A stretch of DNA of 64,000 nucleotides, from the NCBI RefSeq assembly GCF_001678475.1, contig NZ_JTJR01000035.1, positions 62,001 to 126,000 on the forward strand, written 5' to 3'. The notes under the pieces are model-generated. The model did no database searches and had not been told where the DNA came from. It saw nothing but the letters and a program-made list of their open reading frames with translations. Positions 40,330 to 54,321 of the stretch are shown here, in pieces. Position 1 is the stretch's first letter. Every line of letters begins with the position of its first letter. Source of the stretch: Gallibacterium genomosp. 3 (GTDB taxonomy: Bacteria; Pseudomonadota; Gammaproteobacteria; Enterobacterales; Pasteurellaceae). Both the position numbers and the translations under genes were made by a program.

Positions 40330-40617
40330 TCAAACTTTGCGTGATAATGCCTTTTTATATACTTCTAATCTTTCTCTTTTTCCAACTGAAAGCACAATCA
40401 CCGTTATTTCATTGTCGTTTACGTCATAAACGAGACGATAACCTGAAGAACGTAATTTTATTTTATAAAGTGTTTGAAACCCATGTAATTTATCACTAGG
40501 AATTAATGGATTCTCTAACCGTTCAGCAAGTTTTATTTTAAATTGTTCTCGAACAGTATCACCTAATTTTTGCCATTCTTTCAACGCTCTTTTATCAAAA
40601 ATAAGTTTATAGGTCAT
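40330..40617 (-). CDS. RelE/StbE-type toxin (mRNA interferase family)
   Basis: A 95-residue basic protein of the RelE/ParE superfamily: MTYKLIFDKRALKEWQKLGDT is the typical opening, with DKLHGFQTLYKIKLRSSGYRLVYDVND in the core and a final IVLSVGKRERLEVYK. Arg and Lys residues at the usual catalytic positions in the core and tail suggest a ribosome-dependent RNase rather than a gyrase poison. It overlaps the antitoxin gene by 11 nt, the usual coupling in type II modules. The ATG at 40615-40617 is chosen over an adjacent TTG. Confidence 0.88.
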   Translation of the reverse strand: MTYKLIFDKRALKEWQKLGDTVREQFKIKLAERLENPLIPSDKLHGFQTLYKIKLRSSGYRLVYDVNDNEITVIVLSVGKRERLEVYKKALSRKV

Positions 40618-40867
40618 CAAGTGTAACCTCTACTGGCTCAAGCGTTGCAAGGCGTTGTTTCGCTTGTTCACCTAGTTCAGCGTCTTCTAGTACCTCTTGA
40701 ATATAGGCAAATAATTCTGGGCTAACACAATAAAAAACAGGTTCATTTCTGTTTAAGATTGCGATTGCGCCATCTTCTATCGTGCCTTGTGTAATTACAC
40801 CCATCGGATTTTTTTTCAAGTCTGTAATGCTTGCTACATTACTTGTTAATATTTGATGAATAGCCAT
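40607..40867 (-). CDS. StbD/RelB-type antitoxin (Phd/YefM-like)
   Basis: An 86-residue acidic antitoxin. Its N-terminus (HQILTSNVASITDLKKNPMG) has the StbD/Phd-type DNA-binding and dimerisation pattern, FYCVSPELFAYIQEVLED follows, and the acidic C-terminal tail should wrap the toxin. It is upstream of and overlaps the RelE-like toxin gene, so the pair is a type II module resembling StbDE. Such antitoxins repress their own promoter, and a palindrome lies 22 nt upstream. Confidence 0.88.
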   Translation of the reverse strand: MAIHQILTSNVASITDLKKNPMGVITQGTIEDGAIAILNRNEPVFYCVSPELFAYIQEVLEDAELGEQAKQRLATLEPVEVTLDDL

Positions 40868-41161: not shown

Positions 41162-41251
41162 TGGCGGTGAGAGAGGGATTCGAACCCTCGATGCACTTTC
41201 GCACATACACACTTTCCAGGCGTGCTCCTTCAGCCTCTCGGACATCTCACC
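41162..41251 (-). tRNA. serX-type: tRNA-Ser (anticodon GGA)
   Basis: A 90-nt class II tRNA including an encoded CCA end. The acceptor arms are GGTGAGA and TCTCACC, the T arm is GAGGGTTCGAATCCCTC, and the long variable arm (TATGTGCGAAAGTGCA) is that of tRNA-Ser. The anticodon loop is CTGGAAA with anticodon GGA, reading UCC and UCU. It is a single tRNA, with the toxin-antitoxin module on its 3' side. Confidence 0.95.
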
Positions 41252-50307: not shown

Positions 50308-51291
50308 ATGGCATTATTAACTGTAAATAATCTTTCTGTGCATTTTGGTGAGAAAGACAAACCTTTTAAAGTAGTAGATCGTGTTAGTTATCAAGTAGAA
50401 CAGGGTGAAGTGTTAGGCATTGTAGGCGAATCTGGCTCAGGTAAATCTGTAAGTTCACTAGCAATTATGGGGCTAATTGATTTTCCGGGTCGAGTTTCTG
50501 CGGATGATTTACAATTTGATGGACAAGATCTATTAGCTCTTGATCAAAAACAAAAGCAAAAATTAGTTGGTGCGGATGTTGCGATGATTTTCCAAGATCC
50601 AATGACCAGCTTAAACCCTTGCTACACCGTTGGTTACCAAATTATGGAGGCATTAAAAGTACACCAAGGCGGAAGCAAAAAAGCGCGCCGTGAACGTACT
50701 ATTGAGTTACTCCGAATGGTAGGCATTCCAGCGCCAGAATCACGTCTTGATGTCTATCCACACCAACTTTCTGGTGGAATGAGCCAACGCGTGATGATTG
50801 CCATGGCGATTGCGTGTAAACCTAAACTCTTGATTGCTGATGAACCAACTACCGCGTTAGACGTTACCATTCAGGCGCAAATTATCGACCTGTTACTAGA
50901 ATTACAACAAAAAGAGAATATGGCGTTAATTTTAATTACGCACGATCTCGCATTAGTTGCTGAGTCTGCTCATCGCATTATCGTGATGTATGCAGGACAG
51001 GTTGTGGAAGAAGGGTTAGCGGAAGATATTTTCCGTGAACCAAAACACCCTTATACCCAAGCCTTGTTACGTTCATTACCAGAATTCGCTACTGGAAAAT
51101 CTCGCTTGGAATCCTTACCAGGTGTGGTTCCGGGTAAATATGATCGTCCACAAGGATGTTTATTGAATCCAAGATGTCCGTATGCAACCGATGAATGCCG
51201 CCAAACTGAACCTGTATTACAGCAAATTGGTAACCGCCAAGTGAAATGTCATACGCCATTAAATACAGAAGGAAATCCACAACATGTCTGA
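50308..51291 (+). CDS. dppD: DppD, dipeptide ABC transporter ATPase
   Basis: A 327-residue ABC ATPase: Walker [10 protein letters not shown]-loop in [10 protein letters not shown], signature LSGGMSQR, Walker [13 protein letters not shown] and switch histidine ITHD. The C-terminal oligopeptide-transporter extension holds the Cys-rich segment [16 protein letters not shown], which in this family binds an Fe-S cluster. AAGGAG precedes the ATG at 50308; the TTG one codon before is rejected. It overlaps dppF by 8 nt. Confidence 0.95.
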
Positions 51292-52282
51292 AGCTATTAT
51301 TACACAACAATCGCCTACAGATACTCCTTTACTCGAGGCGATTGACTTAAAGAAATATTATCCTGTTAAAAAAGGAATGTTTGCCCCTGTTCAATATGTG
51401 AAAGCTCTGGATGGCGTTTCTTTTAAATTGGAACGAGGCAAAACGTTAGCGGTGGTAGGTGAATCAGGATGTGGTAAATCCACATTAGGACGTTTACTAA
51501 CAATGATTGAATCGCCAACTGAAGGTGAGCTTTATTATCAAGGAAAGAATTTCTTAGAAAAAGATAATGAAACCGTTAAATTACGCCGTCAGAAAATTCA
51601 AATTGTTTTCCAAAATCCATATGCGTCACTCAATCCGCGTAAAAAAATTGGCACAATTTTAGAAGAACCATTAAAAATTAACACCAATTTAAGCAAAGAA
51701 GAACGTAAAGCAGCCGTATTAGCCATTATGGAAAAAGTTGGCTTACGCTCAGAGTTTTATGATCGCTATCCACATATGTTCTCTGGTGGACAACGACAAC
51801 GGATTGCAATCGCTCGTGGCTTAATGCTGAACCCAGATATCGTGGTTGCAGATGAACCTGTTTCTGCATTAGATGTGTCTGTACGAGCACAAGTGCTAAA
51901 TTTGATGATGGAATTACAAGAAACGTTAGGACTTTCTTATATCTTTATTTCTCATGATCTGTCTGTGGTTGAGCATATTTCTGATGAAGTGATGGTGATG
52001 TATCTTGGACGTTGTGTAGAACAAGGCACGACAGAACAAATTTTTAGTAATCCTCGTCATCCTTATACGAAAGCATTATTATCAGCGACCCCAAGATTAT
52101 CGCCTGAGTTGAGACGTGAACGGATTAAATTAACCGGTGAATTACCAAGTCCGTTAAATCCACCGAAAGGTTGTGCATTTAATGCTCGTTGTCAATTTGC
52201 AACTGATAAATGTCGTGAGCAACAACCTGAATTAAAAACCTATCCTGATGGAACAAAAATCGCCTGTTTTATGGTGAGCTAA
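51284..52282 (+). CDS. dppF: DppF, dipeptide ABC transporter ATPase
   Basis: A 332-residue ABC ATPase partner of DppD: Walker [10 protein letters not shown]-loop [12 protein letters not shown], signature FSGGQRQR, Walker [13 protein letters not shown] and ISHD. It has the same C-terminal Cys-rich oligopeptide segment ([16 protein letters not shown]). It starts inside the end of dppD, which implies coupling, and is the last gene of the operon. Confidence 0.95.
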
Positions 52283-52293
52283 TCTTTAAATAT

Positions 52294-52328
52294 GGCTCGT
52301 TAAATCAGTAACTAAAAAATAACGAGCC
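52294..52328 (+). terminator. Possible terminator after dppF
   Basis: ggctcgtta (52294-52302) pairs perfectly with taacgagcc (52320-52328) around a 17-base loop, followed by a weak T-rich run (aacttcttt). Its position just after dppF supports the call. Confidence 0.55.
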
Positions 52329-52395
52329 AACTTCTTTACATAATTAAAACATAATATTGGAATATATCTCATAAAGAGTTTAGATGTCTGATTCT

Positions 52396-53154
52396 CTAAA
52401 GTATTTTCTTTCTCATCTTTGGACGAAAAGATACCTCTTTATCAAATCCTTTTATCTGAATTTTAAGATCATCTGATATTTCTGGCACAACTTCTTTATC
52501 ACTTCTTTGTTTGGATAAAAAATCTACTAATGATTGCCATATAAAATCAGGATCAATATAAATACCAATAGATTGCAAGTTTGGGCTATATGTTAGTTTA
52601 AAAACCTCAATACTCTTTCTATTATCAAAATCATACACATGATTTATATACTCTATTAAGACTATAGGATGATTATAAAATACTTCCCACTCTTTTACCT
52701 CAGGGAACATTAACTCCCTACGTCTGTAAAACATTTTATTAACAAAGGCATTAGCAAATTCTTTTCTATCCATAGTCAGCATTTCATAAAGATACGATTC
52801 CGTACCTACCCCAAAAAACCTAGATATAACATCTAAATTGGTACCATCTTGGAAAGTTAAAGACAGTTGATAAATTAGATTACCTAATTGCTTAGATGGA
52901 GATAATTGCAAACTATTTATATTAAGTAAATCAAAGTGAGAATATACTTTATTTTCTCTATGAAACAGATGAACTGTTTGATTACCAACTAAAAGTATAG
53001 AGTGATTTATTGCGTTTTTTCTATAAGAAATTTTATAGCTATTAGGTTCATTAGAATACTTTTTTGTTCTTCTATTATAGATAAGCTTTTCATCTATACC
53101 ATATTTTGCCACTTTAAAGTCATATAAATCTTTAAATTTACTAATAATCTTCAT
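52396..53154 (-). CDS. Hypothetical protein in an accessory segment
   Basis: A 252-residue soluble, charged protein (MKIISKFKDLYDFKVAKYGID at the N-terminus, KYGIDEKLIYNRRTK following). No signal peptide, membrane segment or catalytic motif is visible. The opening resembles short uncharacterised proteins scattered through bacteria and phages that begin with a similar I-S-K-F-x-D-x-Y-D pattern; that likeness is from memory. Its base composition is more AT-rich than its neighbours. It stands alone between dpp and isc with gene-poor DNA upstream. Function unknown. Confidence 0.7.
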   Translation of the reverse strand: MKIISKFKDLYDFKVAKYGIDEKLIYNRRTKKYSNEPNSYKISYRKNAINHSILLVGNQTVHLFHRENKVYSHFDLLNINSLQLSPSKQLGNLIYQLSLTFQDGTNLDVISRFFGVGTESYLYEMLTMDRKEFANAFVNKMFYRRRELMFPEVKEWEVFYNHPIVLIEYINHVYDFDNRKSIEVFKLTYSPNLQSIGIYIDPDFIWQSLVDFLSKQRSDKEVVPEISDDLKIQIKGFDKEVSFRPKMRKKIL

Positions 53155-53786
53155 AAACCTATCTCAATACTAAGAGTTAAATCAAAGTATATTAATAATT
53201 ACTTTCTTTATATTTACTGAAAGATTTGATACATAACATTCTACCGAAATCATATTCCTCTTTATCTTTGGAATCAAATACTGTCTTTGAAGCTGCTGTT
53301 TCAATCTTTTTACGTATATTTAGCTGTACTTCATACTAAGTAAAACGATTTTGCTAAACTAATTATCGAATCATACAAACTTTTAGCCACAGAAAAATGA
53401 TAACAGAATAAACCTACTTATATTCTGTCATTCTCATCTCTAATATTATTAGAAAATAACTAAACATCTTTTTCACAATCTAGTATAGAAAGATTATTCT
53501 CTAAACCGAAAGAACACACTCACAATGAAAAACCATACTATGCAAAAATTCTACTCATACCCAAAACAAAGAAGAATCTTTGCAGTTAAAATTTTTGGAA
53601 TTAGAAGCAGAACATATAAAAAATTGATATTATCCGAGAAGTAAAAACACACTTCTCGTTAAAATTGTGGTTAATTTACATTCAGTTAAGGAGGTATAGT
53701 TTTTTATCATTTATATAATAAAAACTTAACCTTTAAATTGAAATCAATTTTTTGAGATCAAAATTAGAATTTTTATATTATAAACT
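53155..53786. other. Gene-poor AT-rich stretch between the hypothetical gene and iscX
   Basis: About 630 nt without an intact gene. It holds a minus-strand coding-like fragment (53192-53335), a plus-strand fragment (53529-53627) with a heptad-like charged tail (KEESLQLKFLELEAEHIK), a short 39-codon plus-strand ORF at 53525-53644 and an inverted repeat cgagaagt/acttctcg (53635-53658). A pattern of short open pieces in different frames suggests decayed genes. Confidence 0.5.
53192..53335 (-). pseudogene. Possible 3' remnant of a gene
   Basis: The minus strand is open for 47 codons ending at 53192, with protein-like sequence (YEVQLNIRKKIETAASKTVFD, then KDKEEYDFGRMLCIKSFSKY). A stop codon lies directly upstream and no start with a ribosome-binding site is present. 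It lies 37 nt upstream of the 252-residue hypothetical gene and in the same orientation, so it could be the tail of a former neighbour. No family recognised. Confidence 0.3.
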
Positions 53787-53981
53787 TTATTCAAACTCAT
53801 CTAACCAACAGAGAAAAATCGCTTCTAAAATACGTTCATTTGATTTTTCTGGGTCATCGTCAAATTCATCTAATTCACAAATCCAACGGTGCATATCAGT
53901 AAACCGAACAGTACGAGGATCCAGATCTGGAAAACGCTCATACAATGCTTCACCAATTTGTTGTGCATCTTGCCATTTCAT
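53787..53981 (-). CDS. iscX: IscX (YfhJ), Fe-S assembly regulator
   Basis: A 64-residue acidic protein that binds IscS and iron and tempers Fe-S cluster assembly in E. coli. The sequence matches the family fully: [34 protein letters not shown], and the acidic [16 protein letters not shown]. One base separates it from the fdx stop. I chose the ATG at 53979-53981; a longer reading would overlap fdx. It is the last gene of the isc operon. Confidence 0.96.
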
Positions 53982-53982
53982 C

Positions 53983-54321
53983 TTAGTGCTCCTCTTTCGC
54001 ATGGTTAATGGTGTAACGTGGAATTTCAACCACTAAATCTTCATCGCCTACTACTGCTTGGCAACTTAAGCGGCTATCTACTTCAAGCCCCCACGCTTTA
54101 TCTAACATATCATCTTCTAAATCAGAGCTATCATTAAGCGAATCAAACCCTTCTCGCACAATCACATGACAAGTTGTACAAGCACAAGACTTTTCACAAG
54201 CGTGTTCAATTTCAATCCCAGAACGCAATGCCGCATCTAAAATCGTTTCACCTGTATTGGCATCAACTACCATACCTTCTGGACAATGTTCTTGATTTGG
54301 CAGAAATACAATTTTTGGCAT
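53983..54321 (-). CDS. fdx: Fdx, ISC-type 2Fe-2S ferredoxin
   Basis: A 112-residue adrenodoxin-like ferredoxin that supplies electrons for cluster assembly. The cluster cysteines lie in [14 protein letters not shown] (about residues 39-52) and in RLSCQAVVG (about residue 87). Length matches E. coli Fdx (111). It lies 18 nt after hscA and 1 nt before iscX. Confidence 0.97.

What the first reader, a model, noticed from the sequence alone, without database searches (positions are those of the whole stretch)
52283..53786. AT-rich accessory island between dpp and isc with an unknown gene and decayed DNA
Two core operons are separated by 1.5 kb that holds one unrecognised 252-residue gene and about 630 nt of broken coding-like pieces in several frames. 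This is the least explained segment of the window and the best place to look for an unusual accessory gene.
Basis: partly seen in the sequence, partly recalled or inferred. Interest (0 to 1): 0.5.

Follow-up and report, generated by a model that had tools for sequence, protein, structure and literature searches.

The report
Phage-family gene in bacterial accessory spot
Between two household gene clusters sits one rare, uncharacterised gene whose relatives are found mostly in phages and in some mouth bacteria, where they lie among genes thought to protect against neighbours' toxins; the supposedly decayed DNA beside it is just AT-rich sequence.

Summary
The 252-residue gene (52396-53154, minus) is real, and the dppF-iscX interval is a variable site: of three same-genus genomes, one has a trimeric autotransporter and an EamA transporter there, one has no dpp beside isc, one contig ends. 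The '630 nt of broken coding pieces' is not supported: its longest stop-free stretch (51 codons) is what shuffled sequence gives.

The protein hits no Pfam, NCBIfam or PADLOC family but matches phage family phrog_4243 (unknown function) over its whole length. Relatives occur in T5-like, Cellulophaga and uncultured phages, and as one well-supported branch in bacteria: this genome, one Fusobacterium vincentii record (tandem pair, second copy frameshifted, between cbiC and cbiD) and 10 of 20 Capnocytophaga species. In Capnocytophaga 8 of 9 complete copies lie within 6 kb of a SUKH-1 gene, in clusters resembling published polyimmunity loci; selection there is purifying. The gene is in 1 of 140 species of the host's family.

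Best reading: a horizontally acquired lone gene of a phage-dominated family, most likely an orphan immunity-type protein. Function is inferred from neighbourhoods in other bacteria, not shown; a phage-directed role is nearly as likely. The medium-confidence structure model matched no solved fold.

The parts
52396..53154 (-). 252-aa protein gene of the phrog_4243 family (conserved start MKIISKF.D.YD...D...R and end GFD...SFR)
52293..52329 (.). 10-bp stem with 17-nt loop between the convergent ends of dppF and the 252-aa gene; probably a shared terminator (inferred)
   Evidence: -13.6 (plus) and -17.6 (minus, with a few extra pairs) kcal/mol; none of 200 shuffles folds as well on either strand. 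The terminator scan did not list it (loop too long for that scan)
53155..53786 (.). AT-rich (25% GC) stretch upstream of the gene; no coding signal above chance; presumably holds the promoter, not located (promoter-like sites over the region about as many as in shuffles)
51284..52282 (+). flank: dppF-type ABC transporter ATPase
53787..53984 (-). flank: iscX-type gene (Fe-S_assembly), end of the isc operon

Best explanation
The gene is a horizontally acquired, lone accessory gene at a variable site between two core operons. It belongs to a phage-dominated protein family, and to the one branch of it that has settled in host-associated bacteria. Most likely it is an orphan immunity-type protein: a small cytosolic protein that binds and blocks an incoming toxin of competing bacteria (or of a rival phage or mobile element), working alone without its own toxin. 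Shown here: the family, its spread in phages, the single bacterial branch, sporadic presence, purifying selection in Capnocytophaga, and its place there among SUKH-type and other immunity-like genes. Inferred: that this copy is expressed, that it is cytosolic, and that it neutralises a toxin; the toxin is unknown.
For: Full-length match to phrog_4243, E 3.6e-11; 9 aligned phage and bacterial sequences share 17 invariant columns. Bacterial branch: this protein joins F. vincentii at 97/83 and both join Capnocytophaga at 100/99 support (44 rows, 43 different). Found in 10 of 20 Capnocytophaga species (one of the ten is a 16-residue hit cut by a contig end). 8 of 9 complete Capnocytophaga copies have a SUKH-1 (PF09346) gene starting within 6 kb; even spacing would give 3-9% each. 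Of 18 neighbours scanned (17 different genes, chosen by me) 8 pass a Pfam cut-off: SUKH-1 three, SUKH_6, DUF4272, DUF4304, ankyrin, TPR one each. Such clusters fit the published description of heterogeneous polyimmunity loci, and that paper names Capnocytophaga gingivalis among oral bacteria with many immunity genes and few toxins (PMC3482391, passages seen). dN/dS 0.06-0.10 in the nine Capnocytophaga pairs with dS under 0.7. Rare: 1 of 140 species of the own family, 1 of 369 of the own class, in both cases this genome itself. No neighbour family (three ORFs each side) occurs in more than 2 of 36 distinct loci outside the bacterial branch, so it seems to act alone.
Against: In this window no immunity gene or toxin lies beside it: neighbours are dpp and isc genes, and the own genome has no SUKH-1 gene. 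The 6-kb limit was chosen after seeing the positions: at 3 kb it is 5 of 9, at 5 kb 7 of 9. Five of the nine loci are close relatives and SUKH genes cluster, so these are not independent results; G172 has no SUKH-1 hit on its 18-kb contig. 10 of the 18 scanned neighbours had no family over cut-off. The family is mostly phage-borne, which an interbacterial role does not explain by itself. Two distant Bacteroidota copies lie outside such arrays: one among household-looking genes, one about 1 kb from a T4 gp19-type tail tube gene. Slow protein evolution is unlike the fast change reported for orphan immunity genes of gut bacteria (PMC12247911, abstract and outline seen). No toxin was seen adjacent.
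Confidence: 0.4

Rival explanations
1. It is a phage-derived accessory gene (moron) whose job in the bacterium concerns phages: superinfection exclusion, or in phages counter-defence; its place among immunity genes in Capnocytophaga reflects a general accessory hot spot.
For: Family defined in a phage library; relatives in T5-like phages (weak by tblastn, E 0.002 to 1, but with the conserved ends), Cellulophaga phages, a 642-kb uncultured phage and 48 IMG/VR loci. The Neisseriaceae MAG copy lies on a contig with phage-type ThyX, tRNA-His guanylyltransferase and RNA ligase, so it is probably a phage too.
Against: No prophage gene is apparent near the window copy (read by eye). PADLOC has no model for it. 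The bacterial copies form one branch rather than many fresh captures, and sit with SUKH-type genes in Capnocytophaga.
Confidence: 0.33
2. A domesticated regulatory or binding protein with a host-physiology role unrelated to conflict.
For: Conserved ends and purifying selection; lone gene; in F. vincentii it lies between cbiC and cbiD and in one Bacteroidota genome among household-looking genes.
Against: Absent from 139 of 140 species of the family, the three other genomes of the genus included; in F. vincentii the second tandem copy is frameshifted.
Confidence: 0.17
3. A passing insertion on its way to decay, with no present function here.
For: Very low GC, single genome, no promoter-like site above chance.
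Against: Intact full-length ORF with all invariant family residues kept and a strong stem-loop after its stop codon.
Confidence: 0.1

Closest known systems
PHROG family phrog_4243 (phage proteins of unknown function)
   Same: Full-length match, same conserved start and end, similar length
   Different: Cellular, with no prophage apparent around it; belongs to a separate bacterial branch with extra shared residues such as the V-H-x-F and D-x-x-F-x-W-Q segments
Heterogeneous polyimmunity loci with SUKH, ankyrin and Imm families (PMC3482391, passages seen)
   Same: Its Capnocytophaga relatives lie in runs of small genes that include SUKH-type, ankyrin and DUF4272 genes, with no toxin that I recognised
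   Different: The window copy stands alone; no immunity family in the passages I saw is this one; no toxin partner known
Orphan immunity genes of recombinase-associated interbacterial defence clusters (PMC12247911, abstract and outline seen)
   Same: Immunity-type genes without their toxin; SUKH domains in the published case, SUKH neighbours here
   Different: No recombinase gene beside the window copy (read by eye); different family; slow protein evolution in Capnocytophaga

Membership tests
phrog_4243 | Match to the family profile over most of its length | tested here: met
   residues 1-248 to profile 1-232 of 232, E 3.6e-11; one Fusobacterium and two Capnocytophaga copies also match, 3 of 3 tested
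phrog_4243 | Conserved N-terminal and C-terminal motifs | tested here: met
   M1, I3, D9, Y11, D12, R28, G236, F237, S242, F243, R244 invariant in 29 sequences
Immunity protein of a polymorphic toxin system | Gene next to a toxin gene | tested here: not met
   neighbours in the window are dpp and isc genes. For relatives only read by eye, in part of the loci,'s listing cut
Immunity protein of a polymorphic toxin system | Lies in a run of immunity genes (polyimmunity locus) | tested here: inconclusive
   Capnocytophaga relatives: SUKH-1 within 6 kb in 8 of 9; not so for the window copy
Immunity protein of a polymorphic toxin system | Known immunity fold or immunity family | tested here: inconclusive
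   no Pfam or NCBIfam family; Foldseek none at E 0.001 or better in the PDB, VIA best Z 3.5, model pLDDT 74.5
Immunity protein of a polymorphic toxin system | Binds and neutralises a toxin | not testable with these tools
   -
Known anti-phage defence system | Match to a PADLOC model | tested here: not met
   0 families at E up to 10 (library of 2023)
Prophage remnant | Phage structural, replication or integration genes alongside | tested here: inconclusive
   none recognised by eye among ORFs of 110 aa or more in the window; direct flanks are dppF and iscX by Pfam; the window was not scanned with phage profiles

The most novel reading that the evidence does not exclude
phrog_4243 proteins are a previously unrecognised family of stand-alone toxin-neutralising proteins used by large phages against their hosts' toxins and captured once by mouth and airway bacteria, among which the gene now moves as an all-purpose immunity gene.
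Probability: 0.25. Interest if true: 0.65.

Novelty: new member of a known kind. Interest (0 to 1): 0.4.

Why it matters
It links a phage family of unknown function to clusters of immunity-like genes in mouth bacteria, which turns 'hypothetical protein' into a testable prediction. If right, it would add a family to the list of immunity proteins shared between phages and bacteria. If it is only a phage moron, the find is an ordinary accessory gene at a variable site.

Tried and rejected
Decayed gene in 53155-53786: not above chance and without a convincing match (one search was a first version whose printed list was cut, so I repeated it). Remnant of the YadA-type autotransporter or EamA transporter found at this site in G002: no similarity in the interval beyond the dppF and iscX ends. 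RNA gene in the interval: no Rfam match up to E 1. Promoter: 12 promoter-like sites in 52200-54100 against 11.0 expected. Second copy of the stretch in the own genome: none. A second PHROG, phrog_31314, matched residues 9-35 only, E 0.0095; not pursued. Scans of viral and genome contigs with the single protein found no relative; scans with the alignment did. A search of 80 related genomes with phrog_4243 found only the own gene (0 of 14 control genomes). The plasmid collection gave only the F. vincentii record. Single-sequence structure model useless, pLDDT 38. The alignment-based model (pLDDT 74.5, pTM 0.66) gave no PDB hit at E 0.001 or better; the VIA list was headed by chemokines and PH-like Rtt106 chains at Z 3.5 and below, which I read as noise; in the viral structure library one hit passed E 0.001 (unnamed), and row 3 was a Cellulophaga phi17:2 protein at E 0.0057. 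No PDB sequence relative up to E 1. No paper in the held library holds phrog_4243 in the two spellings that searched. Partner gene conserved beside copies: none in more than 2 of 36 distinct loci. Naming the host by plasmid similarity failed.

Rows dropped before counts: the tenth Capnocytophaga genome (G189) was left out because its copy is cut by the contig end, and near SUKH positions were typed by hand. In one search, of 54 loci, 27 gave a distinct protein by my pattern, 8 were duplicates and 19 missed the pattern; L022 was added by hand. In one search one sequence was in twice under two names, which is why the script counted two changes for the bacterial group. In one search, 50 of 60 loci gave a family ORF. 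In one search, 36 pairs were computed; 20 have no dS because of saturation, seven have dS of 1.1 to 2.7 (dN/dS 0.09-0.20), nine have dS under 0.7.

Full report
What is there. The interval between dppF and iscX is 1,504 bases (52283-53786) and holds one ORF of 252 codons on the minus strand, 52396-53154. The flanks are ABC_tran/oligo_HPY and Fe-S_assembly proteins by Pfam. The ORF is not chance: 500 shuffles of its bases gave no stop-free stretch over 129. It is 27.4% GC against 37.0% for the window. A 10-bp stem-loop lies between the convergent ends of dppF and the gene and looks like a shared terminator. The 632 bases between the gene and iscX are 25% GC; their longest stop-free stretch, 51 codons, is below the shuffled mean of 54.7, so I see no sign of decayed genes.

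The site is variable. Three other genomes of the genus are held; none has the gene by protein or profile search, and DNA search with the interval matched only its iscX end in each. In G002 the iscX-dppF interval is about 7 kb and holds a 1,759-codon trimeric autotransporter (YadA head, stalk and anchor) and a 307-codon EamA transporter. In G001 iscX is next to a sulfatase-like gene and no dpp gene was found in the fetched 19 kb; in G003 the contig ends about 225 bases past iscX. The host is probably a Pasteurellaceae species; that is recalled from gene content and no call names it.

What the protein is. No family in Pfam, NCBIfam or PADLOC at E up to 10. PHROGs gives phrog_4243, unknown function, over the full length, E 3.6e-11. 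tblastn on 50,697 phage records gave 7 weak hits, best E 0.002. The Fusobacterium relative hit 67 records, 41 Salmonella and 12 Escherichia phages among them, also weakly (E 0.01 or more in the 20 rows listed); the phages whose records I opened there are T5-like (Demerecviridae) and their proteins carry the conserved ends. The copy of a 642-kb uncultured phage hit seven Cellulophaga phage records at E 8e-7. An alignment scan of IMG/VR gave 48 loci out of 247 pattern matches, and of GTDB genomes 6 out of 42, three of them Capnocytophaga. Across 29 sequences residues 1-28 and 229-247 are conserved (mean frequency of the commonest residue 0.70 and 0.62), the rest much less (0.17-0.35).

Bacterial branch. 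F. vincentii record NZ_CP084075.1 (called a plasmid, but 2.1 Mb) has two copies head to tail between cbiC and cbiD; the second is frameshifted. In a tree of 44 rows the window protein pairs with the Fusobacterium one (97/83) and both with Capnocytophaga (100/99); the other rows, phages and three metagenome-bin contigs, lie outside. Capnocytophaga: 10 of 20 species. Own family: 1 of 140 species; own class sample: 1 of 369; sample of Capnocytophaga's class: 3 of 395, two of them distant copies outside immunity clusters.

Why immunity. I scanned 18 neighbours of Capnocytophaga copies, chosen by me (one gene twice, so 17 different), against Pfam (8, 10). Eight pass a curated cut-off: SUKH-1 (3), SUKH_6, DUF4272, DUF4304, ankyrin, TPR; the other ten had weak or no hits, two of them sub-threshold SUKH-1 and one sub-threshold Imm30. 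Genome-wide SUKH-1 positions put one within 6 kb of 8 of 9 complete copies, 5 kb of 7 and 3 kb of 5, where even spacing would give 3-9% each at 6 kb; the limit was set after seeing the positions and the loci are related, so this is support, not a clean probability. The 2012 survey of polymorphic toxins describes such toxin-free runs as polyimmunity loci and points to Capnocytophaga gingivalis and other mouth bacteria as rich in them (PMC3482391, passages). Selection on the gene in Capnocytophaga is purifying: dN/dS 0.06-0.10 in the nine closest pairs. Beside copies outside this branch no partner gene recurs in more than 2 of 36 distinct loci, so the protein seems to work alone.

Limits. Function rests on the company the relatives keep. 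The window copy itself has no immunity neighbour and the own genome has no SUKH-1 gene. The predicted structure is of medium confidence and matched nothing solved in the searches run. A phage-directed role is nearly as likely.

Verdict. Interest 0.4, new member of a known kind, with an open and testable function.

Noticed in passing
window 40330-40867 (-): Overlapping pair of small ORFs, 96 aa (ParE_toxin, over cut-off) and 86 aa (PhdYeFM antitoxin, under cut-off): a type II toxin-antitoxin pair, near a tRNA gene at 41165-41251.
   Followed up: partly
L011 10379-16882: In G002 of the same genus the dppF-iscX interval carries a YadA-type trimeric autotransporter and an EamA transporter, so the site seems to be an insertion spot in the genus.
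   Followed up: partly
L002 7228-8730: F. vincentii SB055 has a tandem pair of the family between cbiC and cbiD, the second copy frameshifted.
   Followed up: partly
L108 5632-7961: A distant Bacteroidota family member (274 aa) lies about 1 kb from a T4 gp19-type tail tube gene.
   Followed up: partly
window 53195-53335 (-): A 47-codon stop-free piece ending 40 bases before the gene reads like protein but has no convincing match.
   Followed up: yes
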